DNA of 64,000 nucleotides, taken from assembly GCF_025770765.1 (NCBI RefSeq), contig NZ_JANZKY010000010.1:1-64000 (forward strand), in the 5' to 3' direction. The stretch is from Propionivibrio soli (GTDB lineage Bacteria > Pseudomonadota > Gammaproteobacteria > Burkholderiales > Rhodocyclaceae). The notes under the pieces are model-generated. The model made no database searches and was not told the DNA's origin. It saw only the letters and a list, made by a program, of their open reading frames with translations. Both the position numbers and the translations under genes were made by a program. Below, in pieces: positions 6,241-21,300 of this stretch (within the stretch, counting starts at the first letter, position 1; each line of letters begins with the position of its first letter).

Positions 6241-7029
6241 TTAGAAGACGACCTCGACCTGTTGCTGTGAAAGCAACGAAGCCAATGGCTCCGGCGGCGC
6301 CTCGTCGGTGAACAAGACATCAAGGCAGGACGTGTTGCCGAGCTCGACCGATGCCGATGCGCTGAATTTCGTGTGGTCGATGGCCAGGAAGGCCTGCTTC
6401 GAGTTGGCCATCATGATTTTCATGACCGCCACCTCATTGAAATCGTACTCGAGGATCGTTCCCTGATCGTCGATCGCACCGGCGCTGCTGATGTAGTAGT
6501 CGGCACGGAAGCGATGCAGGAACTCCTGCGCACTCGGGCCAATGATGCCGCTGTTTTGTGGGCGCAATGACCCGCCCGGGATCATGACGTCGAAATCACG
6601 GCGCTTGTACAGCAGGTTGGCGACGCGCAAGCAGGACGTAATGATCCTCAACTCACGCCGGGCGCAGAGTGCCTTGGCGACGGCCTCTATCGTCGTGCCG
6701 GCGGCCAGGAATACGGTACTGCGATCGGGAATGCGCTCAGCAAGCGCCTGAGCGATCTTCCACTTCTCCGTGGTCTGCGAAACCTCGCGCTCTTCGAGTT
6801 CCCGATTGATGGCGCTCGATGCCTGGCTCGCGCCGCCGTGATATCGGGAAAGAATACCGTCTTCGCTCAGACGCTTGATGTCACGGCGCACGGTTTGCGC
6901 CGACACGTTGAGCTGCGCCGCGAGTTCGTCAATGCGCATATGTCCGTTCGCCTTGACGAGCGAAAGGAGCTGATCGTAACGCGGGTTTCCGGTAACGACG
7001 GGAGCGAACGGTGGAGTGTCGGTACTCAT
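6241..7029 (-). CDS. csqR: DeoR-family repressor, CsqR/YihW-like (sulfoquinovose regulon)
   Basis: A 262-residue DeoR-family regulator. The N-terminal winged helix-turn-helix covers about residues 16-70 (RIDELAAQLNVSAQTVRRDI) and the effector domain is of the sugar-phosphate-isomerase type. Compared from memory, the run starting TGNPRYDQLL and the segment GGSLRPQNSGIIGPSA closely follow E. coli YihW (CsqR), the repressor of the SQ genes whose ligands are SQ and SQGro. The start ATG at 7027-7029 is chosen because it gives the YihW-like N-terminus; the frame continues upstream without support. It is the last gene of the minus-strand SQ arm, 130 bases after the GH31 gene, and may also have its own promoter. 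A GlpR-like role is the main alternative. Confidence 0.8.
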   Translation of the reverse strand: MSTDTPPFAPVVTGNPRYDQLLSLVKANGHMRIDELAAQLNVSAQTVRRDIKRLSEDGILSRYHGGASQASSAINRELEEREVSQTTEKWKIAQALAERIPDRSTVFLAAGTTIEAVAKALCARRELRIITSCLRVANLLYKRRDFDVMIPGGSLRPQNSGIIGPSAQEFLHRFRADYYISSAGAIDDQGTILEYDFNEVAVMKIMMANSKQAFLAIDHTKFSASASVELGNTSCLDVLFTDEAPPEPLASLLSQQQVEVVF

Positions 7030-7159
7030 GGGTAGATCAAGAAAGAAACGCCGAATGAATCGGGGCGCGGTCTCGCACCAAACGCCCGGTTGATGTTTGC
7101 CACGCACCGGTCGACGGGGAAGCAAGTATCCCGGCAACGAAGCGTGCGGTCAATCATCG

Positions 7160-9553
7160 TCATCCTTCGAACAAGGTGACGCCGACCGCCGGCTCCGCAC
7201 GTAACGCCAGCAAACGCTTGTCGCCACCCGGCCGGACGACGCGAACGCGCGTGTAGGGCAAGGTCCACGCACCTTCCCGGGTCACATCCAGTTCGAGTTC
7301 TTCCCTACGCCAACGCGCCGAGAACGCCAGCCATGCGCAGGTCGCGTCGGAGAATGAGGCTTGCAGGCCGTCGTCTTCGAACAGCACGGTTTGCATTTCC
7401 GTGTCGCCGGCGTCCGCCAAGGTCGGAAAGACATAGAGACGACGCGATGCCTCTTCCGTTTTTTCTGAGTCGCTCCAAGTGTCGGTCGCCGGCAGCAATG
7501 CGCCGGCGCGCACAAACAAAGGCAATCGATCGAGCGGCACATCGACGGCGATCGTCTGGCCACCAGCATAGTAAGCTCCGGACCAGAAATCGTACCAACC
7601 GGTCGCATGTTTGCCGCGCGGCAGATAAAGCGTCCGCTGACGCACACCGGGCTCGAACACGGGGGCGACGAGCAAATCCGGACCGACGAGCATCTCGTCG
7701 TTCTCATTCCAGCACGCGGCGTCGTCCGCGAAATGGAAGAAGGTCGGTCGCAAGACCGGGACATGCTGCCTGCTTGCCTGCCACATCAAGGTGTAGAGGT
7801 AGGGCATGAGGTGCAGACGCAACCCGATTGCCGCCCGGATCGGTGCCGTGGCCTCGGAATGCAACCATGGCGAATTGACACTGCCGTCAGGCTTCCACGA
7901 ATTCATGATCATACGCGGGACGAGGCAACAAGCCTGCGACCACCGTATCAGCATTTCGGCGTCGGGAACCGGGCCGGCAAAGCCGCCGATATCGTGGCCC
8001 ACGTTGAATAGCCCGGAGAGACTCATCGTCAGAGCCATGCGCTGATTCCAACGCACCGTGTGCCAGCTCGTCGTATTGTCGCCGCTCCATGTCTGAGCGA
8101 AACGCTGAATGCCAGGCGGACCCGCACGTGTCACGGTAAATACTCGCTCGCCGGGTTTTGCAGCGGCCTGTTGTGTCGCCGTGGCCCGTGTCATGAGCAG
8201 GGCGTGCAAAGCACGTGAGCGATGGATGGGAATGGCTTGGCCTCCACCGCAGGAAACGCCCGTTTCGCTCCAGATTTCGTACTCGTTGTTGTCGTTCCAT
8301 CCGGCGTCGATGCCGACGTCGAGAATCTGTTCCTGCAGATTGGCCTGCCACCAGGAACGATCGCTATCGCGCGTGAAATCGAGATGCGCGCCCCAGCCGT
8401 CCCAGAACTGGTCGAGGCACGGCTTTCCGTCTGCGGCGTCGCGGATAAAACCGCCATGCTCCGCGAGGCCGGCATAGGCCGGGTGATCTTCAAGCAGGCA
8501 GGGTTTGAGGTTGGCGACGGTACGTACACCGGCCTCCTTAAACGACCGCATGAGCGCCGGCGCATCGGGGAACTTTTCGGTATTCCATGTAAATACGTAA
8601 CGCCGCTTGCCGCGGCTCGAATAACCTGAGCCAAAATGATAACTGGAGAGCGGGAAGCTTTCAGTTTTTGCCCGTTCGAGGAAGGCGGCGATTCTCACCT
8701 GCGCGTCGGGGAAATCGGTCAATGCCATCGTCGTGTTCGCGTAACCCAGTGTCCACCTGGGCGGCATGGCCGTGCCACCAATCGTGCCCACGTAGCGTGC
8801 CAACGCGCTTGGTACGTCGGGCCCAGCGATGACGTAGTAATCGAGATCGCCGTCGGCGATTTCGGTCGAGCGAAAGAATCCGTGGTAGTTGTCGAACTCC
8901 TGACCGAAATCGAAGGTGCATTCCGCCAAGGTGTCGTAGTAAACGCCATAGGCGCTGCCCGTATCGGCACGGCGTCCAAGGAAGAACGGCCAGTGCTTGT
9001 ACAAGGGATCGCTGGCCTCAGCGTTGTAGCCGAGGGCATCGAGTTGCCGCGTGCGCATCCGGCGGCCGCTTTTGTCGAGACGCCCCGTCTTGTCGCCGAG
9101 GCCGAAGTATTGATCGTTCTCGTCCCGCGCCTGCCAGTGCATCAATGCGCCGCTACGCCCCGCTGCTGCATAGGCGTAGGACCCCCGGTCGGCACAGCAT
9201 GCCTGCCACGCAGCGCCATCCCATTGTTCCCATGTCAGGCCAAAAGGATCAAGCGCGACATGCACGCGCAGGCCATGGCCCGTGAGCGTCGGAGAATCGG
9301 GCGAACCTGAGATCGCCCCTTGGGCGCCCGGAAACAACTGCAGCCGGTCGATGCCGTTCCATGCGGATTCCTGCTCGGCCTTCGCTCCGATCACCCACGT
9401 CCGCGGCTCACGCAGCCCGCCAGGCGGGACGAACAGCACGCGCCCGATACCCTCGCCGACCATCGTCACTCGGCAGGTCCAACCAAGGCCCAATGAAAGA
9501 TCGATGCCGCTCGCGCGGCTGGACAGTATTCTGGCAACGCGTAGCGGTGTCAT
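7160..9553 (-). CDS. GH31-family alpha-glycosidase (second GH31 of the locus)
   Basis: A 797-residue GH31 enzyme without a signal peptide, so probably cytoplasmic. An N-terminal beta-sandwich (to about residue 260) precedes the barrel. The nucleophile is expected at Asp421 in WNDNNEYEIW and the acid/base at Asp492 in WSGDNTTSW, followed by GHDIGGF and a C-terminal domain with VGPDLLVAPVFEPG. It lacks the sulfonate-binding signature seen in the YihQ-like enzyme at 19276, so its substrate is probably a non-sulfonated alpha-glucoside or another glycoside brought in by the adjacent CUT1 transporter. The start ATG overlaps the stop of the ATPase gene by one base (TGATG), indicating translational coupling. 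Specificity is not readable from sequence. Confidence 0.9.
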   Translation of the reverse strand: MTPLRVARILSSRASGIDLSLGLGWTCRVTMVGEGIGRVLFVPPGGLREPRTWVIGAKAEQESAWNGIDRLQLFPGAQGAISGSPDSPTLTGHGLRVHVALDPFGLTWEQWDGAAWQACCADRGSYAYAAAGRSGALMHWQARDENDQYFGLGDKTGRLDKSGRRMRTRQLDALGYNAEASDPLYKHWPFFLGRRADTGSAYGVYYDTLAECTFDFGQEFDNYHGFFRSTEIADGDLDYYVIAGPDVPSALARYVGTIGGTAMPPRWTLGYANTTMALTDFPDAQVRIAAFLERAKTESFPLSSYHFGSGYSSRGKRRYVFTWNTEKFPDAPALMRSFKEAGVRTVANLKPCLLEDHPAYAGLAEHGGFIRDAADGKPCLDQFWDGWGAHLDFTRDSDRSWWQANLQEQILDVGIDAGWNDNNEYEIWSETGVSCGGGQAIPIHRSRALHALLMTRATATQQAAAKPGERVFTVTRAGPPGIQRFAQTWSGDNTTSWHTVRWNQRMALTMSLSGLFNVGHDIGGFAGPVPDAEMLIRWSQACCLVPRMIMNSWKPDGSVNSPWLHSEATAPIRAAIGLRLHLMPYLYTLMWQASRQHVPVLRPTFFHFADDAACWNENDEMLVGPDLLVAPVFEPGVRQRTLYLPRGKHATGWYDFWSGAYYAGGQTIAVDVPLDRLPLFVRAGALLPATDTWSDSEKTEEASRRLYVFPTLADAGDTEMQTVLFEDDGLQASFSDATCAWLAFSARWRREELELDVTREGAWTLPYTRVRVVRPGGDKRLLALRAEPAVGVTLFEG

Positions 9554-10632
9554 CAGCGTATCGTCCTTTCCTCTCCGTCCTTCTCGAACAGATGACAATT
9601 CGCCGGCGGTGCATAAACAACCACCGCATCGCCGATTTGCGTCGACTGCTGGCCTTCGCAATGGAGCGTGATCCGTGTGTTTCCATCGGGCAACATGCCG
9701 TAGATCAGGCAATGTCCACCCAGTTGCTCGACTTCGACGACCTTAAGGGCGAGCGACAGGGCTCCCGGAGACTCTTCGAGACTCAAGTGCTCGGGGCGGA
9801 CACCGAGCATATAGGTCTTTCCCTCGGCAAGACCACTCTCGATATCTAGCGAGAACGCTGTCCCAAAGGTGGTCGCCAAGCGGCTGCCCGCCTCACTCCT
9901 GACAGGCAGGAAATTCATCTGCGGCGATCCGATGAAACCGGCGACGAAACGATTGGCCGGCCGGTTGTAAAGCTCGAGCGGCGACCCGACCTGCTCGATC
10001 CTCCCCTGGCGCAGGACGACGATCTTGTCGGCCATCGTCATGGCCTCAACCTGATCATGAGTCACATAGATCATGGTCGAGCCGAGCCTGCGATGCAGAC
10101 CGGTAATCTCACTGCGCATCGAGACGCGCAGCTCAGCATCGAGATTCGATAGGGGTTCGTCGAACAGGAATATCTTCGGCTCACGCACGATGGCCCGACC
10201 GATCGCTACGCGCTGCCTTTGCCCTCCGGAGAGCTGGGTGGGTTTTCTTTCGAGCAGCGTGTCGAGACGCAGCAGCTTCGCGGCTTCGCCCACTTTTGCT
10301 TTGATCGCGGCTTTCGGCAGCCCCATGTTTTCCAACCCGAAGGCCATGTTCTGGTAGACCGTCATATGCGGATAGAGCGCATACGACTGGAAAACCATCG
10401 CCAGTCCGCGGTCGGCGGCGCGGACATCGTTTACGCGTTCGCCTTCGAGAAAAATGTCGCCGCTCGATGCGTGTTCCAGCCCGCAAATCAGGCGTAACAG
10501 CGTCGACTTGCCGCAACCCGACGGGCCGACGAAGACGACGAATTCACCATCGTCCACCTGCAGGTCGACCCCGTGGATTACGCGCGTCTCGCCAAAGTCC
10601 TTGATGATTTTCTTCAGTTCCAGTGACGCCAT
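9553..10632 (-). CDS. CUT1 ABC importer ATP-binding protein (UgpC/MalK/SmoE type)
   Basis: A 359-residue ATPase with Walker A GPSGCGKST (about residues 37-45), Q-loop MVFQSYALYPHM, signature [15 protein letters not shown], Walker B FLFDEPLSNLD and a C-terminal regulatory domain with TOBE/OB-fold features. It energises the two permeases encoded immediately upstream; the gene starts where the permease gene ends (10632/10633). Gene order binding protein, two permeases, ATPase, GH31 matches a CUT1 sugar operon. Its place between the SQ genes suggests uptake of SQ or SQ glycosides, as SmoEFGH does in Agrobacterium, but the sequence itself does not show the substrate. Confidence 0.9.
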   Translation of the reverse strand: MASLELKKIIKDFGETRVIHGVDLQVDDGEFVVFVGPSGCGKSTLLRLICGLEHASSGDIFLEGERVNDVRAADRGLAMVFQSYALYPHMTVYQNMAFGLENMGLPKAAIKAKVGEAAKLLRLDTLLERKPTQLSGGQRQRVAIGRAIVREPKIFLFDEPLSNLDAELRVSMRSEITGLHRRLGSTMIYVTHDQVEAMTMADKIVVLRQGRIEQVGSPLELYNRPANRFVAGFIGSPQMNFLPVRSEAGSRLATTFGTAFSLDIESGLAEGKTYMLGVRPEHLSLEESPGALSLALKVVEVEQLGGHCLIYGMLPDGNTRITLHCEGQQSTQIGDAVVVYAPPANCHLFEKDGEERTIR

Positions 10633-11682
10633 TTATTTGACTCCCGCCGAGGCGATGCCCTGAGTGATGTGTTTTTGCAAGAAGGCGAAGACGACCGTGA
10701 CCGGCAGCAAGGTGATTACGGTCATGGCCAACAGGTAATTCCACTGGGTAATGAGATCGCCCTGGAACGCGTTGAGCGCGAGCTGTAGCGTGAATTTCTC
10801 GGCCTTGGAAAGCACGATCAGAGGCCACAGGAAATCGTTCCAGCGCCACATGATCGAGAAGATGGCAAGCACGGCAAGCGCGGGGGCCGACAACGGCAGC
10901 ATGATGCGCCAGTAGATTTGCCATTCGCTGGCGTGGTCCATGCGCGCAGCCTCGAGCAGCTCGTCGGGAATGGTGAGCATGTATTGCCGCAGCATGAACA
11001 CGCCTGTCGGCGTGGCAACGGCCGGCCAGATCACCGCCCACAGGCTGTTCAGCAATCCGAGTTCGGTCACGACCAGGAAGTTCGGCACAAGCACGATCGC
11101 CGGCGGCACCATCAGTGTGGCGATGATGAAGAGGAAAACACCGGAGCGCCCCCGAAACTGGTATTTCGACAATGCGAATGCGGCCATCGAGTTGAACAGC
11201 AACGTGATCACCGTGGCCACGATCGTGATGAATACCGAATTCCAGAGGTATTTTCCGAAGTCGAGCTTCCTCATCAGGTCGGAGTAGTTCTCAGTCGCCA
11301 GACGGAATTCGCGCACCGGCTGGCGATCCTTGATGTTTACGCGGATCGGTTCTTCGGGTTTCGCCGGGTCGACATACGTAGCCATCAGGCCGATACGCCG
11401 TATTTCCGGCAACTCCTTCATGGTGCCGTCGGGCAGCTTGACGCGAAAAACCGGTTTCGGTTTCTCTTCACCTGGCACCATGACTGACTTCTGCCCGTAG
11501 GGAAGGAGCGTCGGCGGGAATTCACTCAAGGCGGCTTCGGTCTTGAATGACGAGGCAACCAGCCAGAGGACGGGCCCGAACATCAGGAACAAGCCGACGC
11601 AGAGATAGGCGTAGGTGAGCCAGTCGGTCCAATGCAAGCGGCTGCGGCCCCGGGTGGCAGTGAGGTACGAGACGAGCTTCAT
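10633..11682 (-). CDS. CUT1 ABC importer permease (MalG/UgpE type)
   Basis: A 349-residue inner-membrane permease with an N-terminal transmembrane helix (about residues 23-43), an unusually long periplasmic insertion of roughly 120 residues, then the five-helix permease core. The EAA motif that docks the ATPase reads EAARMDHASEWQIYWRIMLP. The start ATG overlaps the stop of the preceding permease by four bases (ATGA), which sets the start firmly against a longer in-frame extension. It pairs with the MalF-type permease to form the translocation channel. The long charged first loop, including LPDGTMKELPEIRRIGLM, is larger than in typical MalG proteins and occurs in a subset of CUT1 permeases. 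Confidence 0.9.
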   Translation of the reverse strand: MKLVSYLTATRGRSRLHWTDWLTYAYLCVGLFLMFGPVLWLVASSFKTEAALSEFPPTLLPYGQKSVMVPGEEKPKPVFRVKLPDGTMKELPEIRRIGLMATYVDPAKPEEPIRVNIKDRQPVREFRLATENYSDLMRKLDFGKYLWNSVFITIVATVITLLFNSMAAFALSKYQFRGRSGVFLFIIATLMVPPAIVLVPNFLVVTELGLLNSLWAVIWPAVATPTGVFMLRQYMLTIPDELLEAARMDHASEWQIYWRIMLPLSAPALAVLAIFSIMWRWNDFLWPLIVLSKAEKFTLQLALNAFQGDLITQWNYLLAMTVITLLPVTVVFAFLQKHITQGIASAGVK

Positions 11683-12596
11683 TTGGCACGCTCCCCGGCT
11701 GATTCGGCCTTCGTGACCCGCAGCTGCAGTAGCGTTAGCACGATCAATGCGAGCGCAAGCAGAAGCGAACCCGCCGCCGCAATGCCGTAGAGGCGGATCT
11801 GCTCCTGGAATGCCGTCTGATAGATGTATTGGACGACGAACATGGTCGCCGAGCCCGGACCACCCCCGGTGAGCACGAAGACGTTGTCGAAGGTCTGTAC
11901 CGCACGGATGGCGCCGAGGACGCCGACGACGATCATGTTCGGCATCAAAAGAGGAAGCGTGATTCGCCACAGTGTTCGCCACGGCGAGGCGCGATCCATT
12001 TGCGCCGCCTCGTACAGATCGGCTGGGATAGCCTGCAGACCGGAAAGCAGGATCAACGTGTAAAACCCCATTTGCGACCAGATGCTGACGAAGGTGACCC
12101 AAAAGAAGGCCCATTCGGGCTCGCCGAGCCACAGTACGGGCTCGCCGCCGATCGCGACGACGATGGCATTGAGCAGTCCGTCACGTTGCAGAATCCACTT
12201 CCAGATCAGGGAAACGACCACCGGCGAAAGCAGGACCGGATAGAAGAAAACGCCGCGCCAGAATCCACGACCGATGATCTTGCGGTTAAGCACGAGCGCA
12301 GTGATGAGACTGAAGAGGATCATCAGCACGACCTGCAGCACCGAAAAATAGGCGGTGTTCCAAACGGCCCGCCAGAACAGGTCTTTGCGGCAGGTGGAGA
12401 CGTCCCAATAGTTCTTGCAGTCGAGCAGGGTCGCCATATTGTCCCAGCCGACGTAGGGACGGTCTTGCGGATAGAGCTGAACTCCGCCGGTGAAGGCGTA
12501 GTAGAAGTTGATGACGATCGGCAAGAACGTGAAGACGCCGAAGATCACCAGATTTGGCGTGAGGAAATACCAGGGAGTACGCGCCGCCTTATTCAT
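11679..12596 (-). CDS. CUT1 ABC importer permease (MalF/UgpA type)
   Basis: A 305-residue permease with six predicted transmembrane helices, the first at about residues 9-31. The coupling motif is EAAQMDRASPWRTLWRITLP, followed by the family-typical VQTFDNVFVLTGGGPGSAT. It forms the channel with the MalG-type partner encoded next. The gene starts at 12594-12596, 187 bases after the binding-protein gene; that gap holds a GC-rich hairpin expected to lower permease relative to binding-protein mRNA. Confidence 0.91.
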   Translation of the reverse strand: MNKAARTPWYFLTPNLVIFGVFTFLPIVINFYYAFTGGVQLYPQDRPYVGWDNMATLLDCKNYWDVSTCRKDLFWRAVWNTAYFSVLQVVLMILFSLITALVLNRKIIGRGFWRGVFFYPVLLSPVVVSLIWKWILQRDGLLNAIVVAIGGEPVLWLGEPEWAFFWVTFVSIWSQMGFYTLILLSGLQAIPADLYEAAQMDRASPWRTLWRITLPLLMPNMIVVGVLGAIRAVQTFDNVFVLTGGGPGSATMFVVQYIYQTAFQEQIRLYGIAAAGSLLLALALIVLTLLQLRVTKAESAGERAK

Positions 12597-12757: not shown

Positions 12758-12783
12758 CTTCCCGCACGGCTTGTTCGAACGAG

Positions 12784-14073
12784 TTATTTGGCGGCGCCTT
12801 TCACCTGTTCGTCCATGTCCGCCGCAAGACGCGCGATCGCATCGTCCGCCGATAATTCCCCGGCAACCGCTTGTCCGAGACGCTGCGCCGTGGGCAGAAA
12901 CACGGCCCGGTTGAGCCCGTAGCCTTGAAGCTCGTAATTCGCCTTGGCGATCTTCGGAACGTCGGCGACAAAAGTGTTCAGCGCGGTCTTGGCCGCCGGC
13001 GACACGTCATAGTTCACACCGGCTTTCGCGACGCCAAGATGTGCCGGAATGTTCTCGGTCTTGGCCATCAGCTCGGCATAGACGGCATCGCCCGCCAGGA
13101 AGTCGAGGAACTTGGCCGCCGCCGCCGGGTTCTTCGTGCGCTTGAAGGCAACATACGCCGCTCCACCCGGCATCGCCGTACACGCCGCCGGACCACAAGG
13201 TGCCGGAATGACGGCCCAGTCGAAGGCCTTGCTTGCCTGGGAGCTCATCCGCCTGACTTGCCAGGAGCCCGAGTAGTACATGACGACGCGGCCGTTGACG
13301 AATTCGTCAAAAGCGTCGCGATACTGGGAACCGCCGACACCACCCCAGACCTCTTTCGGCATCAGGCCGTTCTTGTGCCAATCGATGAATTTCTTGGCCG
13401 CCGTCTTGTATCCCTCGTCCATGATCGGCTTGCCTTTGTCATCGAAGATCTTTGCGCCATAAGCAACGGCCAACGGAGCGAAGCGGTGACCGCTACGATC
13501 CATCGCCATAGCGAACGGCGTCTTCGTCGCGTCAGCCACCTTCTTGGCCGCGGCCATCCAATCATCCCAGGTGGCCGTTGCGGGCGGCAACGGAATGTTT
13601 GCCTGCTCGAAGAGCGTCTTGTTCACGAAGCCGCCGGTGACCGTGAGTTGCGACATCAAGCCATAGATGCCTTTGCCCGCCGCCTTCTCTTCCGGCGAGC
13701 GGAACCAACTCAGCGTCGAGGCGAGGTTATCCTGCCAGTACTTGACGCGCGCTGCGCCAAGGTAAGGCGTAAGGTCGAGGTAGTACTTGTTGAGCCCGCC
13801 GAGGTCGGTTACACGCCCGATATCCGGGCCTTCACCCGCCGCCAGCTGCACCGGCAGCTGCTCGACGACGGCTTTGTAAGGAACCTTGTCGATCACGACC
13901 TTAATGCCCGGGTTCGCCGCCTCGAAGCGTTTGGCGATGTCGCCCGTGACTTCGCATTCGTTGCCGTCGGAGTAACACTGCACGCGCAGTTCCTGTGCAA
14001 CCGCCTGGGAACCGATGCCTAGAAGGACGCCGACTGACATCGCCACGATAATTCTGTTTCGCTGCAATTTCAT
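12784..14073 (-). CDS. CUT1 ABC importer solute-binding protein (candidate SQ/SQGro binder)
   Basis: A 429-residue extracytoplasmic solute-binding protein. The signal peptide runs to about residue 26 (AMSVGVLLGIGSQAVAQE). The mature part has the bacterial extracellular solute-binding family 1 fold; landmarks are FEAANPGIKVVID, LAAGEGPDIGRVTD, YYSGSWQVRRM and a C-terminal AVAGELSADDAI. The ATG at 14071-14073 follows a GGGGGT ribosome site. It heads the transporter part of the SQ arm, 175 bases below the isomerase gene. By analogy with SmoF of the sulfo-SMO clusters, which binds sulfoquinovosyl glycerol, it may bind SQ or its glycosides, but an ordinary alpha-glucoside would also fit because a general GH31 enzyme is in the same operon. 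Confidence 0.88.
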   Translation of the reverse strand: MKLQRNRIIVAMSVGVLLGIGSQAVAQELRVQCYSDGNECEVTGDIAKRFEAANPGIKVVIDKVPYKAVVEQLPVQLAAGEGPDIGRVTDLGGLNKYYLDLTPYLGAARVKYWQDNLASTLSWFRSPEEKAAGKGIYGLMSQLTVTGGFVNKTLFEQANIPLPPATATWDDWMAAAKKVADATKTPFAMAMDRSGHRFAPLAVAYGAKIFDDKGKPIMDEGYKTAAKKFIDWHKNGLMPKEVWGGVGGSQYRDAFDEFVNGRVVMYYSGSWQVRRMSSQASKAFDWAVIPAPCGPAACTAMPGGAAYVAFKRTKNPAAAAKFLDFLAGDAVYAELMAKTENIPAHLGVAKAGVNYDVSPAAKTALNTFVADVPKIAKANYELQGYGLNRAVFLPTAQRLGQAVAGELSADDAIARLAADMDEQVKGAAK

Positions 14074-14248: not shown

Positions 14249-15595
14249 TTATGTCAGCTCGACCAGTTCCAGACCGAGATACTTGGCGATCTGGCGCAAA
14301 ACCGGGCGGTGCTCACCATACGTCAATGAACAATGGTGTTCCATGCCGGCGTCAAGAAGGCGTTGGCGGAACACATCGGCATTCGCGTCTAGCCGCGCTA
14401 CGCCCGACGTACCAGAATAGGCCAGCGGCGCTTTTTGCATCTCCCCCCCCGCCAGCATCATGCGCAATTTACCCTGCCCCTGCGTAACCCGGCACAGCGT
14501 GATGCGCCCTGGTTTAAGCGGAAACTGCGACAGCAAGGGCAGCTTCCGGTTCGAGTGAATCGTCGCTATCGGCTGCACGTCGGGATCGGCCATTTCGATA
14601 GGTGCCTGTCCACAATGCCAGAAGACGACCGTGTCGCTTTGAGCATCGATATCGACGAGGTCCGTATTAAATACGCCCTTCTCCGACGTCCACTGCAGAA
14701 TCAGCGAGGAAACGACGCCGTACATATCCGCCTCGCAACCACCGGGCCGGCGATCCTCGTTCATAAGCGCGATCGCACCGCACGCCGCACAGCCGTACTG
14801 AGTGAAAAACTCCGGCCAGCACCGCACGGCGATGCCGGCAAAGCCTTCGCTCTCGGCTCGCGAACGCAATTCCGCATAGACCTTCAGCGTCTTATGTGTC
14901 GCAGCCTGATCCATCTCCGCGAGGTTCGGGAAATCGGCGGCGCGACGCGCGAACGCCTCATCGGCGGACGAATCGGGAAGACGCTTGACGCTCTCGATGA
15001 ATTCGTCGACAGCCACTCGCTCCGACCGCACACCGAAACGCGACTCAAGCATATGGCCGTCGTAATTGCAGGCATCGAAACCCACCGGATGCTCACCGAC
15101 GACAAGAATCCGGGCTTCGGCGAGCTTCCGCACGACGGCTGCGGCGCGTGCCAGTTCTTCGATCTTGGCCAGGGTTTCGGTGCTCTCCGGCGCCCCGTGG
15201 ACGTTATCCAGCGTCTTCCCCAATCGGCTCAATGCATGGCTGGCGAGGTTTACGCCGCAAAAGGAATTGAGGCGTAGCCGCCCGCCCGTACGCGCTTCCG
15301 GAAACGTCCATACGATCAGCGGAACGCCCAGATCGCGGGCAATCGTCGCGCAAACGGAAGCATCGGTGAACGTCACCTGCAGGAGTAACAATACGTCGAT
15401 ACCCCGGGCATTGACCGCTGAGAATGCCGCGAGCGCCGGATCGCTATCGAAATGCAGAACCTTTTCCCCGACGATCTCGATTGGCAGGCGGCTTAACCCC
15501 GCCCACGCGGACTCGAAGACTTCTCGGGCGTAGTCGACGTCGAACGTAGAACGGCCAACGGCGATGACGCCAATTCTCGGTCTCTCTGAGTTCAT
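14249..15595 (-). CDS. sftI: L-fucose/L-arabinose-isomerase-type ketol isomerase, candidate sulfoquinovose isomerase
   Basis: A 448-residue protein of the L-fucose isomerase-like family, which uses a divalent metal for aldose-ketose conversion. The N-terminal Rossmann-like part begins RIGVIAVGRSTFDVDYA. Metal and catalytic residues are expected at the Glu and Asp of PGGCEADMYG and at the histidines of GMEHHCSLTYGEH near the C-terminus. In the context of the transaldolase, SftX-type protein, SQase and SLA reductase, the expected reaction is SQ to 6-deoxy-6-sulfofructose. This isomerase type, rather than the YihS (AGE) fold of the E. coli pathway, is what I recall from sulfo-TAL clusters. The start at 15593-15595 gives a normal N-terminus. 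The substrate is inferred, not seen. Confidence 0.75.
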   Translation of the reverse strand: MNSERPRIGVIAVGRSTFDVDYAREVFESAWAGLSRLPIEIVGEKVLHFDSDPALAAFSAVNARGIDVLLLLQVTFTDASVCATIARDLGVPLIVWTFPEARTGGRLRLNSFCGVNLASHALSRLGKTLDNVHGAPESTETLAKIEELARAAAVVRKLAEARILVVGEHPVGFDACNYDGHMLESRFGVRSERVAVDEFIESVKRLPDSSADEAFARRAADFPNLAEMDQAATHKTLKVYAELRSRAESEGFAGIAVRCWPEFFTQYGCAACGAIALMNEDRRPGGCEADMYGVVSSLILQWTSEKGVFNTDLVDIDAQSDTVVFWHCGQAPIEMADPDVQPIATIHSNRKLPLLSQFPLKPGRITLCRVTQGQGKLRMMLAGGEMQKAPLAYSGTSGVARLDANADVFRQRLLDAGMEHHCSLTYGEHRPVLRQIAKYLGLELVELT

Positions 15596-15655: not shown

Positions 15656-16396
15656 TCAAGAAAACAGGTGGCGAATAAAAAGATAGGAACCGATGCAAAA
15701 CAGGAATCCATGCACCAGCGCGTGATAGTTGATACGCCTTGCCTGCAATCGGTCCCAGGCTTTCACCCCGGCGTATAGGCCAAGCAAGAAGCTCGGCACT
15801 CCCCAGGCGAAGAGCGAGAACACTTCACCGGTCAGCAAGCCTTTGCTCCAAAAGCCGGCCATGGCCCCCACCATCTGCAGCATGAAGAAGAACACCAGGC
15901 TCGCCTTGACCTGATCCGCGGTCCACGACTGCATTGAGGCGAACGCAATGGCCGGCGGTCCCGGTTCGCCGACGCTCGCGCCCAATGTTCCCGAACAGAA
16001 ACCGGCCAGCGCCGACGAAAGACCGGCCGGCTGCCCGCCTCGCGCAACGGCCATTCTTCCCCGCAACGCATGGACCGACGAGACGACCAGGACGGTCCCC
16101 ATGGCGACGAGAATCCAGCGTGCCGGCATCAGCTTGAGTACGTTCGCACCCAGCAACGAACCAGGCAACGAAGCACCGGCCATGATGAAACCCGTCCGCC
16201 ATTGCACATGCTGGCGCATGCGGATGACGAGTGGGAACGTGATCAACCAGCCGAAAAGGCCGGCAACCGGAACGGCCAACTTGACGTCGAGCAGGAGTGA
16301 AAGCAAAGGCACAGACACGAGCGCGAGTCCGAATCCGGTTAGTCCCTGAACGAACGTCCCGAGCAGAATCACGGCGGCTACCCAGGCAGCTTCCAT
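15656..16396 (-). CDS. TauE/SafE-family anion exporter, candidate DHPS/sulfonate exporter
   Basis: A 246-residue membrane protein with about seven to eight hydrophobic segments and the TauE/SafE hallmarks: an N-terminal GTFVQGLTGFGLALVSVP, and its repeat-like second-half counterpart ALAGFCSGTLGASVGEPGPP. Members export sulfite, sulfoacetate and other organosulfonates across the inner membrane. It lies 35 bases after the SLA reductase and 60 bases before the isomerase on the same strand, so it probably removes the pathway end product DHPS. The ribosome site is GAGAGAACGAAGG before the ATG at 16394-16396. The cargo is inferred from context. Confidence 0.85.
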   Translation of the reverse strand: MEAAWVAAVILLGTFVQGLTGFGLALVSVPLLSLLLDVKLAVPVAGLFGWLITFPLVIRMRQHVQWRTGFIMAGASLPGSLLGANVLKLMPARWILVAMGTVLVVSSVHALRGRMAVARGGQPAGLSSALAGFCSGTLGASVGEPGPPAIAFASMQSWTADQVKASLVFFFMLQMVGAMAGFWSKGLLTGEVFSLFAWGVPSFLLGLYAGVKAWDRLQARRINYHALVHGFLFCIGSYLFIRHLFS

Positions 16397-16431
16397 TGCC
16401 TTCGTTCTCTCTGAAGACTCGCGTAGCCGGT

Positions 16432-17331
16432 TCAGCGTATGCCCGTCGGGGTCCGCAGCCCCGACGCGTCACGCAGGTGCTCTAGCACGGCAGTCCAATC
16501 CTGCCGCCCCCTCCCCTTGGCGCGTGCCTGATTGTAAATTTCCCTGGCCGCGGCCCCCATCGGAAGCGTCGTATGCAAGCGGTTCGCGACGTCGAGCGCT
16601 AGTCCGATGTCCTTATGGGCGTGGTCCACCATGAAAGCCGGCGAAAGATCACCCTTGAGCACTTTGCCGGGCCATGTCGTCGTGAAGTGCCCCTTGTTGG
16701 CAGGCGTCCCCTTCATCACCGTCAACGCCACGTCGAAATCCAGGCCAAGGGCTTCGCACAAGGTGGCCGCCTCGGCCGACAGCGCGTTCAGCGCGATGCT
16801 CATGTAGTTGTTGACGATCTTGACGCGGATGCCCATGCCCGGACCACCCGCGTTGACGAGTTCGTTCCCCATTAGCATCAGGACAGGTTTGGCGCGCTCG
16901 ATCTGCAATTCGGTTCCACCTGCCAGCAAGAGCAACGACCCCGTCACCGCGTGATCGGAGGTGCGGCCAACCGGCACGTCCATCATCTCAATCCCGATCT
17001 TCGCCATGCGGGCAATCAACTGGTCGGTCTGCAGCGGATGAATGGTCGACATGTCGATGACAAGCGCGCTAGACGCAAGCGTCGTGGTGGCCCCCTGATC
17101 GCCGAATAGAACGTCCTGAACCAAGTCGCCGTTGGGCAGCATGGTGATCAGGAACTCGGCACCCCGCGCCGCTTCGGCAGGACTGGCGCACCCCTTCGCG
17201 CCTGCCTGCGCAAGAACGTCCACCGCCGTGCGGTCGACGTCGAAAACCTGGAGCGTGTGCCCGCCCTTCATCAGATTGAGCGACATCGGCCGTCCCATTT
17301 GGCCGAGCCCGACAAACGCGATGACCGCCAT
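16432..17331 (-). CDS. yihU: 3-Sulfolactaldehyde reductase, YihU type
   Basis: A 299-residue beta-hydroxyacid dehydrogenase with the Rossmann motif [13 protein letters not shown] (residues 9-21). The sulfonate-binding residues described for E. coli YihU are all in register: Arg123 in DVPVGRTS, and Lys171, Asn174 and Ser178 in KIVNNYMS. Similarity to YihU recalled from memory is high over the whole length ([32 protein letters not shown]). It should reduce 3-sulfolactaldehyde to 2,3-dihydroxypropane-1-sulfonate with NADH. The start ATG at 17329-17331 follows a strong AAGGAGAGG. It is the first gene of the minus-strand arm and faces the 447-base divergent control region. Confidence 0.92.
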
Positions 17332-17395
17332 GACCTCTCCTTTTTGCCAAGCTTCGGAGCAGATATCCGAGGCAATGCTGGTTGTTTGTAGGCAA

Positions 17396-17431
17396 TTTAT
17401 ACCAACCACCGAAAAATAACAATCATAAACG
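17396..17431 (-). promoter_or_regulatory. Predicted promoter and operator of the yihU-tauE-sftI arm
   Basis: On the minus strand an extended -10, TGGTATAAAT, has TATAAA at 17396-17401. Its -35 region (about ATTGTT, 16 bases upstream) lies within a motif at 17408-17431 that contains GTTTAT, then TTGTTATTTTT. The same motif in the other orientation sits at 17620-17643; I count 17 of 24 positions identical. A repressor bound here would block RNA polymerase, fitting control by the CsqR-like DeoR protein. Confidence 0.55.
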
Positions 17432-17619
17432 CTCATTTTTTTACAAAAACCTCGCCAAGGGGTAGCCAACGAGCGACAAATTTTAAGTTAACATGTATTT
17501 TCAAACAGTTACAATAAAACCACTCTTGTGCAAACAAAGGTGAAGGCCACCGCCTCTCAGTAAAGTCAGTAAGAAATCAGCTGTTTCGGTCCAATACGGC
17601 GACGCTCGTTGTTGTTTAG

Positions 17620-17659
17620 TGTTTATTTCTGTTGTTTTTTGATTTATTCAGCGTAGAAT
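17620..17659 (+). promoter_or_regulatory. Predicted promoter and operator of the sftT-sftX-SQase arm
   Basis: On the plus strand TTGTTT (17632-17637) and TAGAAT (17654-17659) are spaced by 16 bases and form a fair sigma-70 promoter, 120 bases before the transaldolase start. The -35 overlaps the 24-base motif at 17620-17643 (GTTTATTTCTGTTG then a T-run), which matches the motif over the opposing promoter. GTTGTTT also occurs twice exactly 20 bases apart (17611 and 17631), a direct-repeat pattern often seen with DeoR-family repressors. Confidence 0.55.
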
Positions 17660-17778
17660 GATTTCGTCGCTGGACTCGAACGAATCGCGCCGCTGGCTTT
17701 GCGCCGTCGCGCAGCCGGAAGTGGCCGCAACGAGGATGGCGCGTACCGGTTTCGATCAATCAGAGAGGAGTGACGGCC

Positions 17779-18459
17779 ATGAAGTATTTTCTCGACAGCG
17801 CGAAGCTCGACGAAATCGACCTCGCTTACAACACGTTTGGCATCGATGGCGTAACGACGAATCCGCGCCACGTTCAGGCCAGCGGCAAACCGCTCCGCAC
17901 GGTGCTGAAGGACATTGCGGCATGGGTCGATAAACAAGGGCTCAACGGCTACGAGAAATTTCCGGTCTCGGTGGAAATCAATCCGCATCTGGCACTGTCG
18001 GCCGAAATGATTGAAGCGGCCCGCCCCATCGCAGCCCTCTGCCCCAACTTTGTCATCAAGCTTCCATGTACCGAACAGGGATTGACGGCTTCCCGCAAAC
18101 TCGAAAAGGAAGGTATCCGGACCAACGTCACCCTGGTCTTTTCGCCATCACAAGCCATACCCGCCGCCAAGAACGGTGCGCTCTTCGTATCCCCGTTCGT
18201 CGGCTGGAAGGAGGAGCACGGCGACGACTGCGGGCAGTACCTGGCCGACATCATGGCGATCTACCGCACCTATGGTTTTGCGACGCAGATCATCATCGCC
18301 GCCTTGCGTAGCAGCAAGCAGATCGTTGACGCGGCTCGGCTTGGGGCCCACATCGTCACCTGCGGACTGGCTGTCTATCAGGGCGGTTTCGAGCACCCCT
18401 ACACGAAGAAGGGGCTGGAGATCTTCCAGAACGCGTGGGACGGCACAGCCACCGACTGA
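17779..18459 (+). CDS. sftT: 6-Deoxy-6-sulfofructose transaldolase (SftT type)
   Basis: A 226-residue transaldolase of the small fructose-6-phosphate-aldolase/TalC class. The Schiff-base lysine is Lys94 in FVIKLPCTEQGL, and the barrel motif GVTTNPR lies at residues 24-30. Most transaldolases of this size have a serine after TTNP; here it is Arg30, a candidate for sulfonate recognition. The expected reaction moves the dihydroxyacetone unit of sulfofructose to glyceraldehyde-3-phosphate, giving fructose-6-phosphate and 3-sulfolactaldehyde. The ATG at 17779 is preceded by AGAGAGGAG at good spacing; a GTG nine bases earlier overlaps that site. It is the first gene of the plus arm. An ordinary transaldolase is the alternative, but DUF4867, SQase and YihU neighbours argue against it. 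Confidence 0.85.
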   Translation: MKYFLDSAKLDEIDLAYNTFGIDGVTTNPRHVQASGKPLRTVLKDIAAWVDKQGLNGYEKFPVSVEINPHLALSAEMIEAARPIAALCPNFVIKLPCTEQGLTASRKLEKEGIRTNVTLVFSPSQAIPAAKNGALFVSPFVGWKEEHGDDCGQYLADIMAIYRTYGFATQIIIAALRSSKQIVDAARLGAHIVTCGLAVYQGGFEHPYTKKGLEIFQNAWDGTATD

Positions 18460-18577: not shown

Positions 18578-19255
18578 ATGAAGGAAAAACTGCAAGCGCT
18601 CAATCCGCATCTCCCGGTACACCACGTGGCCGACGCCGCGTTTGCGCTGTACGGCCGCGTTTTGCCGGGTTATAACTTCACGGGTTGGCTCCGTTATCTC
18701 GAGAAGCAAACGCTCCTTCCCGCCGAGGGCAACATCTACATCCCGGGCGATCCGGAGCTCGAGGCACTGCCGCCGTTCGAGCAGGTGCGGGACACGCTGT
18801 TCGCCGGCATGCCGATCCAGGCAGGCTACTGCAATGGGAACAGCAGCCTTCTCAATGGCCTGGAGTACCACAAGTCGATCGAGGTGGTCGTGGCACAAAC
18901 CGACCTCGTACTGCAACTCGCCGATTACGGTCACCTGGTCAACTTCACGATGGACGTAAAACACGTCGAGGCCTTCTTCGTTCCGACGGGGACAGCGCTC
19001 GAACTTAAACCGACGGCGCTTCATTTGGCACCGAGCCGGGTCAGTGATGCAGGCTTCAAGGCGGTGATCGTCCTGCCACTCGGGACCAACACCGATCTTC
19101 CGCCGCAAGCTCAGATCCAGCGGGAAGACCCCGAGTCGCGGCTGCTATTCCGCAAGGGGAAATGGATGCTGGCACATCCTGACAATCAGGTAGCTCTTTC
19201 ACGCGGCGCGGTGGCCGCACTGATCGGCCCCAACCTGCGGATAAACTACCAATAA
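18578..19255 (+). CDS. sftX: DUF4867 protein, SftX type
   Basis: A 225-residue cupin-like protein of the DUF4867 family. Recognisable segments are IQAGYCNGNSSLLNGLEYHK, VEAFFVPTGTALEL, LHLAPSRVSDAGFKAVIVLP and LGTNTDLP. The biochemical role is unknown; the family co-occurs with sulfo-TAL genes in Firmicutes, where it is called SftX, and its presence here is one of the strongest context signals for that pathway. It has no signal peptide, so it is cytoplasmic. The start ATG at 18578 follows GAGGAAG; a long in-frame upstream extension overlaps the transaldolase and is rejected. It lies 118 bases after the transaldolase and 20 before the SQase. Confidence 0.85.
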   Translation: MKEKLQALNPHLPVHHVADAAFALYGRVLPGYNFTGWLRYLEKQTLLPAEGNIYIPGDPELEALPPFEQVRDTLFAGMPIQAGYCNGNSSLLNGLEYHKSIEVVVAQTDLVLQLADYGHLVNFTMDVKHVEAFFVPTGTALELKPTALHLAPSRVSDAGFKAVIVLPLGTNTDLPPQAQIQREDPESRLLFRKGKWMLAHPDNQVALSRGAVAALIGPNLRINYQ

Positions 19256-19275
19256 CGACAGCAGAGGGGACCGCC

Positions 19276-21300
19276 GTGCCTGAAGAGGATTGCCTGGTTT
19301 TCGCGTCCACAGGCGAGAGCTTCATTGTCTCGTTGGGTGGGAACGTTCTGATCCGGCACGAGCCCGACGCGCCGGCGTTCTTCGCGGGCAAAGGGGAACC
19401 GGAGAGCCATCTGTATCGTGGCAATTTCAAAGTGCACGACCGTGTGCTCGCGCGCGCGCCGCTCACCGTCATTGCCGTGCAAAACGGCGCTTCGCAAACT
19501 TTTCTGACGCTTCAGGGAAAGGACAGCGAGCAGCGGGTTACGCTCACCATCGACAAGGCCCGCCGGACCATCGGCGTATGTCTAGGGGGCGGGCTGAACC
19601 GCTTCTGGATCCGACTGCAGAACGAACCAGGCGAACACCTGTGGGGAGGTGGGGAGCAGTTTTCGCACTTCAGCCTTGCCGGCCGGCGTTTCTCAATGTG
19701 GGTACAGGAACCGGGCGTCGGGCGCGACATGACAACGCGCATGACGATGCTTGCGGAAATCCAGGGACAAGCCGGCGCGCATGAAGCGGCCACGTACTAC
19801 CCACAGCCCACTTTCATTTCCAGCCGGCACTACGCCTTGCACATCGATTCGTCGGCGTATTCCGTGCTCGACTTCACCTCGCCGATGTTCCATGAGCTCG
19901 AGGTGTGGGACGCCGATTTCCGCTTTGAACTGTTCGCCGGCGTCAGCCTGAAGAACTTGGTGCAGCAGCTTGCACAGCGTTTCGGGCATAGCGGACATAT
20001 CCCGGAATGGGTGTACAACGGAGCCATCCTCGGCCTGAAACGCGGTCTGGAGCGCAACCTCGAAATCCTTGAGCAAGCCCTGAGTGCCGGGATAAACGTG
20101 TCCGGCCTGTGGTGCGAAGATTGGTGCGGACTGCGCCAGACATCCTTCGGCGCGCGCCTGTTCTGGAATTGGCAATGGAACGCACAGCGTTACCCGGAAC
20201 TACCGGTGCAAATCCGGCGGTTGAGGGAACGCGGCATCCGCTTCCTCACCTACAACAACCCGAACCTCTGCTCCGACGGCGAACTGTTCAAGGAAGCGGC
20301 GGCAAAGGGGCTGCTGACGAAAAATCCCGACGGCTCGCTTTGCACCATCGACTTCGGCGAGTTCGATTGCGGTTTTGTCGACCTCACGAGCGAGGCAGGC
20401 CGGCAGTGGTACAAGGACCGGATCATCAAGCGCAACATGCTCGATCTCGGCATCTCCGGCTGGATGGCCGACTTCGGCGAATACCAGCCGACCGACATGC
20501 GGGTGGCATCGGGCGAGGACGGCTGGAAGGTCCACAACCGATGGCCCGAGCTCTGGGCACGCGTCAATGCCGAGGCGATAGCGGAAGCCGGGCTGAGCGA
20601 CGACATCCTGTTCTTCATGCGTGCCGGCTACACGGGATCGCAACGCTACTGCAAACTGCAGTGGGCAGGTGATCAGTGCGTGGACTTCTCGCGGCATGAC
20701 GGCATGGAGACGGCGATTTGCGCCGCGCTTTCCGCCGGTTTGCTGGGCAATGCCGTCAGCCACAGCGACGTCGGCGGCTACACCACGCTTTACGGCAACG
20801 TACGCACCGAGGAAGTGTTCATGCGCTGGGCAGAGATGAGCGCCTTCACCCCGGTGATGCGCACCCATGAGGGTAACCGGCCGGACGAATCGTTCCAGTT
20901 CTACCAGTCCGAACGCGCCCTCGCTCACTTCGCCCGCATGACGCGGATCTACAAGACGCTTGTTCCTTACCTCAAGACGCTTTCACAGGAGGCAGCAAGC
21001 ACCGGCCTGCCGATCCAGCGCCCGCTCGCGTTGCACTTCGAAGACGACCGCAACACCTGGGCGATCCACGACCACTACATGTACGGGCCCGATCTTCTCG
21101 TCGCCCCGGTCCACAAGTCCGCCGTCACCCGTTGGCGTGCGTATCTACCCGCGGGAGAAACATGGACGCATCTATGGAGCGGTAAGAGCCATCTCGGCGG
21201 GCAGACGGTGGAAGTCGACGCGCCGATCGGCGAAATTCCGGCGTTCTACCGATCCGGGACGCCATGGGAGGCGGTGTTTCTCGCCGCCGCGCGCGCCTGA
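19276..21300 (+). CDS. yihQ: Sulfoquinovosidase, YihQ-like GH31
   Basis: A 674-residue GH31 enzyme that hydrolyses alpha-sulfoquinovosides such as SQGro to release SQ. The nucleophile is Asp399 in WMADFGEYQPTD and the acid/base is Asp466 in WAGDQCVDFS. Residues at the sulfonate-pocket positions of E. coli YihQ (Gln262, Gln288, Arg301, Trp304, Tyr508) are here Lys255, Glu281, Arg294, Trp297 and Tyr502. This is the KERWY version of the signature known from Agrobacterium-type SQases rather than the QQRWY version of E. coli. No signal peptide is seen, so glycosides must be imported first. The start is GTG at 19276 behind AGAGGGGA. The ORF ends 57 bases from the convergent Phn-type genes. Confidence 0.95.
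   Translation: MPEEDCLVFASTGESFIVSLGGNVLIRHEPDAPAFFAGKGEPESHLYRGNFKVHDRVLARAPLTVIAVQNGASQTFLTLQGKDSEQRVTLTIDKARRTIGVCLGGGLNRFWIRLQNEPGEHLWGGGEQFSHFSLAGRRFSMWVQEPGVGRDMTTRMTMLAEIQGQAGAHEAATYYPQPTFISSRHYALHIDSSAYSVLDFTSPMFHELEVWDADFRFELFAGVSLKNLVQQLAQRFGHSGHIPEWVYNGAILGLKRGLERNLEILEQALSAGINVSGLWCEDWCGLRQTSFGARLFWNWQWNAQRYPELPVQIRRLRERGIRFLTYNNPNLCSDGELFKEAAAKGLLTKNPDGSLCTIDFGEFDCGFVDLTSEAGRQWYKDRIIKRNMLDLGISGWMADFGEYQPTDMRVASGEDGWKVHNRWPELWARVNAEAIAEAGLSDDILFFMRAGYTGSQRYCKLQWAGDQCVDFSRHDGMETAICAALSAGLLGNAVSHSDVGGYTTLYGNVRTEEVFMRWAEMSAFTPVMRTHEGNRPDESFQFYQSERALAHFARMTRIYKTLVPYLKTLSQEAASTGLPIQRPLALHFEDDRNTWAIHDHYMYGPDLLVAPVHKSAVTRWRAYLPAGETWTHLWSGKSHLGGQTVEVDAPIGEIPAFYRSGTPWEAVFLAAARA

What the first reader, a model, noticed from the sequence alone, without database searches (positions are those of the whole stretch)
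6241..21300. Complete-looking transaldolase-type sulfoquinovose degradation locus in a betaproteobacterium
Seen: YihU-type SLA reductase with all sulfonate-binding residues, YihQ-like sulfoquinovosidase with the sulfonate signature, a small transaldolase, a DUF4867 protein, a fucose-isomerase-type isomerase, TauE exporter, CUT1 importer and CsqR-like repressor, in two divergent arms. Known: this enzyme set defines the sulfo-TAL pathway, described mainly in Firmicutes. The combination here with an E. coli-type reductase and regulator and an Agrobacterium-type SQase and transporter looks like a mosaic. Expected output is fructose-6-phosphate plus excreted DHPS.
Basis: partly seen in the sequence, partly recalled or inferred. 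Interest (0 to 1): 0.92.

Follow-up and report, generated by a model that had tools for sequence, protein, structure and literature searches.

The report
Proteobacterial sulfosugar-degrading gene cluster
A betaproteobacterium carries what looks like a complete gene set for eating the plant sulfolipid sugar sulfoquinovose by a transaldolase route that the papers consulted place in other bacterial phyla, assembled from parts with different kin.

Summary
The transaldolase lies in the sulfofructose-transaldolase clade (100/100), 59-61% identical to three Bacillota members. The sulfo-TAL reading is best: SQ to sulfofructose, then fructose-6-phosphate plus sulfolactaldehyde, DHPS, export. No activity was shown.

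The mosaic is largely right: reductase and repressor are E. coli-like (69%, 55%), the sulfoquinovosidase alpha/betaproteobacterial (51-54%), the isomerase nearest a Zymomonas plasmid gene (56%; 26-30% to nine Bacillota/Bacteroidota homologues; under the SftI cut-off). The Agrobacterium-type transporter is not supported. DUF4867 was found in 2 of 99 related genomes, own included. The other, a betaproteobacterial MAG, keeps the core but has a split transketolase, RpiB-type isomerase and Fe-ADH instead of the reductase, like the bifurcated Faecalicatena layout. Passages read in nine papers place sulfo-TAL in Firmicutes, Thermotogae, Chloroflexi and Dormibacteraeota; the founding papers were not seen.

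The parts
6241..7029 (-). CsqR-like DeoR-family repressor (longest frame opens at 7137; start chosen by comparison with CsqR)
   Evidence: 55.4% over 251 aa to E. coli CsqR, 42-44% to four other DeoR proteins of the genus; 70-71% ortholog in G015, the only other congener found with the locus
7160..9553 (-). GH31 glycosidase of a non-YihQ subgroup, substrate unknown
   Evidence: Pfam GH31 6.6e-73; lacks the YihQ W304 and Y508 equivalents; 42-52% to enzymes at the end of SBP-permease-permease-UgpC cassettes
9553..10632 (-). UgpC/MalK-type ABC ATPase
   Evidence: NCBIfam UgpC 481 bits, cut-off 432
10633..11682 (-). CUT1 permease 2
   Evidence: 60-68% to cassette permeases
11679..12596 (-). CUT1 permease 1
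   Evidence: 58-66% to cassette permeases
12784..14073 (-). CUT1 solute-binding protein
   Evidence: SBP_bac_1 2.1e-31; best plasmid relative 51.9%
14249..15595 (-). SftI/SqvD-like sulfoquinovose isomerase of a divergent proteobacterial kind
15656..16396 (-). TauE/SafE-family exporter, probable DHPS exporter (substrate inferred)
   Evidence: Pfam TauE 1.7e-24; no NCBIfam hit
16432..17331 (-). YihU-type 3-sulfolactaldehyde reductase
   Evidence: 69.2% to E. coli YihU, R123/K171/N174/S178 kept, positions recalled; model over cut-off; 444 bits to 6sm7, 159 to the next
17332..17778 (.). Divergent intergenic region; by eye TTGTTT-16-TAGAAT at 17632-17659, with TTGTTT-16-TATTAT at the like place in the congener
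   Evidence: the automatic scan did not report this site but another, 17488-17515
17779..18459 (+). SftT/SqvA-type 6-deoxy-6-sulfofructose transaldolase
   Evidence: 287 bits to BmSF-TAL 8bc3, 150 to Thermotoga transaldolase, the best outside BmSF-TAL; clade 100/100
18578..19255 (+). SftX/SqvB DUF4867 cupin
   Evidence: Pfam 2.5e-62; 181 bits to B. megaterium SqvB 9gyy
19276..21300 (+). YihQ-type GH31 sulfoquinovosidase
   Evidence: PRK10426 854.6 bits, cut-off 553; K-E-R-W-Y and both catalytic Asp kept, positions recalled; tree
4658..6163 (+). glpK glycerol kinase, convergent to the repressor; may use glycerol freed from SQ-glycerol (inferred)
   Evidence: glpK also lies in sulfo-ED-like loci of B. 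multivorans and Microvirga and 2.3 kb from SftI in the sulfo-TAL-type locus L008

Best explanation
This is a regulated sulfoglycolytic sulfofructose-transaldolase (sulfo-TAL) locus in a betaproteobacterium. Inferred working: a sulfoquinovosyl glycoside (most likely SQ-glycerol) enters, perhaps through the CUT1 importer; YihQ hydrolyses it to SQ; the DUF4867 cupin may help open or interconvert the sugar ring; SftI isomerises SQ to sulfofructose; SftT moves the C1-C3 unit to glyceraldehyde-3-phosphate, giving fructose-6-phosphate for glycolysis and sulfolactaldehyde; YihU reduces this to DHPS; TauE exports DHPS; CsqR represses until SQ or a derivative binds. Shown here: the genes, their family placement, conserved residues and recurrence of the core in one congener. 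Not shown: any activity, transport substrate, ligand or growth.
For: SftT in one clade (100/100) with BmSF-TAL, two Clostridia sequences and the congener; 59-61% identity to the three Bacillota rows, 31-43% to the seven others in the tree. Lys89 of BmSF-TAL (named in PMC12890257) and the TTNPRH and PFVGWKE stretches are kept where Thermotoga transaldolase has TTNPTL and PFVGRMDD. YihU 69%, model over cut-off. PRK10426 over cut-off for the sulfoquinovosidase. DUF4867 close to BmSqvB, with an E-x-H-x3-E and a later H matching the spacing of the ligands Glu97/His99/Glu103/His150 given in PMC11968277. Isomerase model with arabinose/fucose isomerase fold; E288, D312, H327 and H421 among the invariant residues of 11 homologues. 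No blastp hit of 17 window proteins to E. coli YihV, YihT or YihS, and no PF00365 or PF01116 in 10 of 12 locus proteins. The core SftI-SftT-DUF4867-YihQ and the CsqR ortholog recur in one other congener, the ortholog on another contig. Of two PF04295 proteins in the genome one is galactarate dehydratase (over cut-off) and the other a 520-aa relative under that cut-off, so no evident SuyB.
Against: The isomerase scores 269 bits against the SftI cut-off of 700, is only 26-30% identical to nine Bacillota and Bacteroidota homologues, and its joining with Zymomonas is by identity, not by a well-supported branch; the tree program warned of long branches there. The importer's kin lie beside uronate-type genes in 4 of 7 opened contexts. 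In the PDB search a Bacillota sulfoquinovosidase (6pnr, E. rectale SftG by PMC11968277) scored above E. coli YihQ (682 against 634 bits), although identity and tree point the other way. The role of DUF4867 is unknown even where studied, and no mutarotation activity was detected (PMC11968277). SQase, reductase and CsqR are also at home in sulfo-EMP, so these three alone do not define sulfo-TAL. Kinase and aldolase were not sought in the rest of the genome.
Confidence: 0.85

Rival explanations
1. Two adjoining operons of different purpose (compatible with the sulfo-TAL core, rival only on the importer): sulfo-TAL (YihU-TauE-SftI and SftT-DUF4867-YihQ) and a CUT1-GH31 cassette for another anionic or neutral alpha-glycoside, such as a uronide. 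SQ then enters by another carrier.
For: The same five-gene order SBP-permease-permease-UgpC-GH31 occurs beside UxaC and UxuA in Microvirga, beside a glucarate-dehydratase relative (under that model's cut-off) in B. ubonensis and beside LacI alone in Roseomonas; importer relatives lie beside annotated GH88 and kduI genes in Aminobacter and Pannonibacter. GH31 paralogs about 40-43% identical occur in seven genomes of the genus, own included; in the two of these opened they follow TRAP transporter genes. A 175-bp gap separates SftI from the SBP gene.
Against: One importer relative (51%) lies in a Marinovum locus with an alkanesulfonate-monooxygenase-like protein, an aldo-keto reductase-like protein and a flavin reductase, which resembles sulfo-SMO. 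In Microvirga a sulfo-ED-like gene set follows the cassette on the same strand. In the window the cassette is enclosed between SftI and csqR on one strand, and no other importer lies in the two arms (a PhnCDE-type transporter lies just beyond, 21358-24836).
Confidence: 0.4
2. A hybrid sulfo-EMP locus that uses a sulfofructose kinase and aldolase elsewhere in the genome, the transaldolase being incidental.
For: YihU, CsqR and YihQ also occur in the E. coli sulfo-EMP locus; the best plasmid-borne isomerase relative, in Zymomonas, lies beside a class II aldolase and an aldose epimerase.
Against: No YihV or YihT relative among 17 window proteins; SftT is of the SF-TAL clade and stays linked to SftI and YihQ in the congener. 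Kinase and aldolase were not sought genome-wide.
Confidence: 0.07
3. The transaldolase and isomerase serve an ordinary sugar.
For: The NCBIfam best hit of SftT is the general fructose-6-phosphate aldolase model, under its cut-off; the isomerase is under the SftI cut-off.
Against: 59-61% identity to SF-TAL proteins against 31-43% to others, clade support 100/100; neighbours are an SLA reductase and a sulfoquinovosidase.
Confidence: 0.04

Closest known systems
Sulfo-TAL (sulfo-SFT) pathway of Bacillus megaterium / B. aryabhattai, Eubacterium rectale, Enterococcus gilvus, Clostridium symbiosum
   Same: Set of SQ isomerase, SF transaldolase, DUF4867, sulfoquinovosidase, exporter and SLA-converting enzyme; SftT about 60% identical to BmSF-TAL
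   Different: Betaproteobacterial host; SftI only 26-30% identical to nine Bacillota and Bacteroidota homologues; SLA reductase and repressor E. coli-like; sulfoquinovosidase alpha/betaproteobacterial; extra GH31 and CUT1 cassette
Bifurcated sulfo-TK/sulfo-TAL cluster of Faecalicatena sp. (PMC11659671, passages read)
   Same: The congener MAG bin_91 has SF-type transaldolase, split transketolase, RpiB-type isomerase and Fe-ADH with SftI and YihQ
   Different: The window locus has no transketolase arm; the congener is a betaproteobacterium and carries a TRAP transporter; its transketolase and Fe-ADH reach no cut-off of the specific NCBIfam models
E. coli yih sulfo-EMP locus
   Same: YihU 69%, CsqR 55%, YihQ 42%
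   Different: No YihS, YihV or YihT relative among 17 window proteins; SftI and SftT take their place
Cluster on Zymomonas mobilis plasmid pZZM402
   Same: SftI relative 55.6% identical, also under the SftI cut-off (288 of 700)
   Different: Class II aldolase, aldose epimerase, Gfo/Idh protein and succinate-semialdehyde-type dehydrogenase; no transaldolase or YihU annotated in the stretch opened

Membership tests
Sulfo-TAL pathway | SF transaldolase of the SF-TAL clade | tested here: met
Sulfo-TAL pathway | SQ isomerase of the SftI/SqvD family | tested here: inconclusive
   Only NCBIfam hit is the SftI model, but 269 bits against a cut-off of 700; fold and invariant residues fit; apart from the Bacillota/Bacteroidota homologues in the tree
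Sulfo-TAL pathway | SLA reductase or dehydrogenase in the cluster | tested here: met
Sulfo-TAL pathway | Co-localisation of these genes within a few open reading frames | tested here: met
   YihU, TauE, SftI, SftT, DUF4867, YihQ within 14249-21300
Sulfo-TAL pathway | DUF4867 (SftX/SqvB), frequent but not essential | tested here: met
Sulfo-TAL pathway | Conversion of SQ to DHPS or SL with fructose-6-phosphate | not testable with these tools
   needs enzyme assay and culture
Sulfo-EMP pathway | SF kinase and SFP aldolase in the locus | tested here: not met
   no blastp hit of 17 window proteins to YihV or YihT at E up to 1e-3; no PF00365 or PF01116 in 10 of 12 locus proteins; the rest of the genome was not searched
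Sulfo-TK pathway | Split SF transketolase and SE isomerase in the locus | tested here: not met
   no transketolase or RpiB domain in 10 of 12 locus proteins; present in the congener; three transketolase N-terminal relatives of the own genome lie on other contigs at 37-45%
YihQ-type GH31 sulfoquinovosidase | R301/W304/Y508 sulfonate residues and catalytic D405/D472 (positions recalled) | tested here: met
   positions 262 and 288 are K and E, not Q and Q as in E. coli
CsqR | Closer to CsqR than to GlpR and other DeoR regulators, linked to SQ genes | tested here: met
   ligand and operator untested
SmoEFGH (Agrobacterium) importer | Solute-binding protein of the SmoF type | tested here: inconclusive
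   no sulfoquinovosyl-glycerol-binding protein named among 55 PDB hits at E up to 1; no Smo sequence was at hand for direct comparison

The most novel reading that the evidence does not exclude
The genus carries a modular sulfolipid-headgroup scavenging system: a fixed proteobacterial core (divergent SftI, SF-TAL, DUF4867, YihQ, CsqR) to which either a C3 tail (YihU to DHPS) or a C2 tail (transketolase, Fe-ADH to isethionate) is attached, and in the window a CUT1-GH31 cassette for a second anionic headgroup, for example alpha-glucuronosyl glycerol. The GH31 subgroup would then be a glycosidase for anionic alpha-glycosides other than SQ, an activity that I do not recall for GH31.
Probability: 0.2. 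Interest if true: 0.72.

Novelty: new variant of a known kind. Interest (0 to 1): 0.55.

Why it matters
Passages read in a review and distribution studies place sulfo-TAL in Firmicutes, Thermotogae, Chloroflexi and Dormibacteraeota (PMC12890257, PMC9594981, PMC10599462). A betaproteobacterial version with a divergent isomerase would widen that range. One aquatic survey asked for at least 30% identity, E up to 1e-50 and 70% coverage of its reference proteins (PMC13372026); an isomerase 26-30% identical to Bacillota and Bacteroidota homologues could fall below that if the reference was a Firmicutes SftI (its reference table was not seen). The same survey found 13C-labelled Zoogloeaceae and Burkholderiaceae without a canonical SQ cluster and reads them as secondary degraders on DHPS and SL, or users of uncharacterised routes; a locus like this one is a testable alternative.

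Tried and rejected
(1) Repressor as GlpR of the neighbouring glpK: suggested by the NCBIfam ranking (GlpR-type model 227.8 bits, under its cut-off of 331); rejected after direct comparison with CsqR (55% against 36-44%) and because the only close congener ortholog is in the other SQ genome, beside genes that look like ftsYEX (by eye) and not glpK.

(2) Ancestral CUT1-GH31 cassette in the congener: relics of a UgpC-like and a GH31 gene flank its TRAP genes. I first took them for the window's cassette; read by eye against the alignment, the GH31 relic resembles the TRAP-linked paralogs of the genus, so the inference was dropped.

(3) A shared CsqR operator: only two pairs of regions shared weak 16-of-20 matches (window and congener; two window stretches), and no common palindrome, among the intergenic regions of the window, the congener and E. 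coli.

(4) The solute-binding protein as SmoF-like: not supported.

(5) Recent acquisition by composition: GC 0.58-0.63 and GC3 0.70-0.81 in the 12 locus genes, within the spread of 17 other window genes (0.56-0.62 and 0.62-0.82) apart from YihU's GC of 0.63; no sign.

A guess at the genus Propionivibrio was only used as a paper search (0 papers) and is not claimed.

(7) A shadow frame in L082 gave no family hits; the right frame was scanned.

(9) Row dropped: the partial sulfoquinovosidase of L013 (42.9% over 296 aa) was left out of the YihQ tree. In the SftI comparison six further Bacillota rows at 23-26% identity served as distant rows.
Full report
What is there. The interval 6241-21300 holds two divergent arms. 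On the minus strand, from the centre outwards: YihU-type reductase, TauE-family exporter, fucose/arabinose-isomerase-type isomerase, then a solute-binding protein, two CUT1 permeases, a UgpC-type ATPase, a GH31 enzyme and a DeoR-type repressor. On the plus strand: small transaldolase, DUF4867 and a YihQ-type GH31. All 12 frames are open. Family scans of 10 of the 12 (not the permeases) support the names, with one reservation: the isomerase hits only the SftI model in NCBIfam, at 269 bits against a cut-off of 700.

The transaldolase is the diagnostic part. Its best solved relative is B. megaterium SF transaldolase (287 bits; the best outside that enzyme, Thermotoga transaldolase, 150 bits). In a tree of 12 rows it joins BmSF-TAL, two Clostridia proteins and its congener in one clade with 100/100 support, and the seven other proteins stay outside; one of these, L006, has a very long branch. 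The Schiff-base lysine (Lys89 in PMC12890257) is kept.

The repressor. By family model it looked like GlpR, but it is 55.4% identical to E. coli CsqR, 42-44% to four other DeoR proteins of the genus (two of them its own paralogs) and 36-40% to the two pieces of E. coli glpR. In the genus 12 of 28 genomes have a match at E up to 1e-40, but only the window genome and G015 (70%) have one above 45%; G015 is the only other genome of the genus found with the locus, and there the repressor lies on another contig.

The importer and the second GH31. The five-gene order SBP-permease-permease-UgpC-GH31 recurs on B. ubonensis, Microvirga and Roseomonas plasmids. Of 169 plasmid records with a relative of the binding protein (25 listed) I opened seven: uronate-type genes in B. 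ubonensis, Microvirga, Aminobacter and Pannonibacter, an alkanesulfonate-monooxygenase-like set in Marinovum, three Gfo/Idh proteins in Phyllobacterium, and a LacI regulator alone in Roseomonas. In Microvirga a sulfo-ED-like set follows on the same strand. The CUT1 transporter in the sulfo-ED-like locus of B. multivorans is not close: its binding protein gave no hit at 1e-10 and its permeases 29-36%. The importer therefore probably carries an anionic glycoside, but SQ-glycerol is not established. In the window genome UxaC lies on another contig.

Rarity and the congener. DUF4867 was found in 2 of 99 genomes of the nearest relatives, the window's own and G015, in 1 of 399 of the order (own) and 1 of 398 of the phylum (own). 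A transaldolase at E up to 1e-45 was found in 1 of 297 genomes of the family (own) and 1 of 369 of the class (own). These are samples, and G015 shows that a sample can miss a carrier. One scan of named genomes with the single DUF4867 protein, which reaches close relatives only, gave 20 loci, one of them betaproteobacterial: 'Betaproteobacteria bacterium isolate bin_91', whose contig has the length, match positions and scores of G015's. Among the 20, a transaldolase of the SF-TAL type (59% identity or more) lay in 3. The bin_91 locus has SftI, SftT, DUF4867 and YihQ at 77-81% identity in the same divergent layout, but in place of YihU it carries an Fe-ADH, a split transketolase and an RpiB-type isomerase, with a TauE-family protein and a TRAP transporter. 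These assignments are at family level: transketolase halves and Fe-ADH reach no cut-off of a specific NCBIfam model (sulfoacetaldehyde reductase 218 of 700). No YihU relative at E up to 1e-20 was found in G015, a 70% complete MAG. This is the layout of the bifurcated transketolase/transaldolase pathway of Faecalicatena (PMC11659671, passages read).

What is known. PMC12890257 (passages) lists sulfo-TAL for Firmicutes, Thermotogae and Chloroflexi and sulfo-TK for Firmicutes, Spirochaetes and Thermotogae; PMC9594981 (passages) agrees on sulfo-TAL; PMC10599462 (passages) adds one Dormibacteraeota and calls its sulfo-SFT members mainly Firmicutes, in a study limited to clusters with SLA dehydrogenase. 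PMC13372026 (passages and section 22) does not say in the text read which phyla have sulfo-TAL. I read passages of nine papers; none reports a proteobacterial sulfo-TAL in those parts. The other papers listed by the searches were seen as listings only; figures and supplements were not seen, among them the taxonomy panels of PMC11968277 and PMC13372026 and the cluster figure of PMC11659671; Frommeyer 2020 is not held and Liu 2020 was not read. So the claim is 'not found in what was read', not 'never reported'.

Verdict. The novelty is the host phylum, the divergent isomerase and the exchangeable tail seen in the congener; the chemistry itself is known. The transporter claim is the weak point.

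Noticed in passing
L003/L004 (JAIFNM010000044.1) 295-10350: Congener locus with SftI, SftT, DUF4867, YihQ plus RpiB-type isomerase, split transketolase, Fe-ADH and TauE: a bifurcated sulfo-TK/TAL layout in a betaproteobacterial MAG.
   Followed up: yes
L003 12024-12196 and 15331-15705: Decayed remnants of a UgpC-like and a GH31 gene on either side of TRAP transporter genes.
   Followed up: partly
L024 (Zymomonas mobilis pZZM402) 128-11361: Plasmid cluster with an SftI relative, class II aldolase, aldose epimerase, Gfo/Idh protein and succinate-semialdehyde-type dehydrogenase; looks like a hybrid sulfosugar locus, with no sugar kinase among the 21 annotated features of the stretch opened.
   Followed up: partly
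L061 (G000:C23) 3304-10042 and L063 (G012:C72) 5770-12532: LacI-TRAP-GH31 cassettes in the genus (DctP of L061 by family model; the other TRAP and LacI genes read by eye), with GH31 paralogs about 41% identical to the window's second GH31; a hint that this GH31 subgroup acts on anionic glycosides.
   Followed up: partly
window 21358-28493: PhnCDE-type transporter convergent with the sulfoquinovosidase gene, with two PhnE-type genes, followed by a two-component system and a metallo-beta-lactamase-fold protein; no C-P lyase gene among the proteins scanned there.
   Followed up: partly
window 222-4263: UgpC-like ATPase, a lone DhaK dihydroxyacetone kinase subunit and a LacI-type regulator beside glpK; no open dhaL-like frame seen on the minus strand between 1301 and 1945.
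   Followed up: partly
L005 4872-6863 and L009 5676-7641: In two Bacteroidota MAGs an SftI-like gene sits directly beside DUF4867, without SftT or YihQ relatives at E up to 1e-8 on the stretch held.
   Followed up: no
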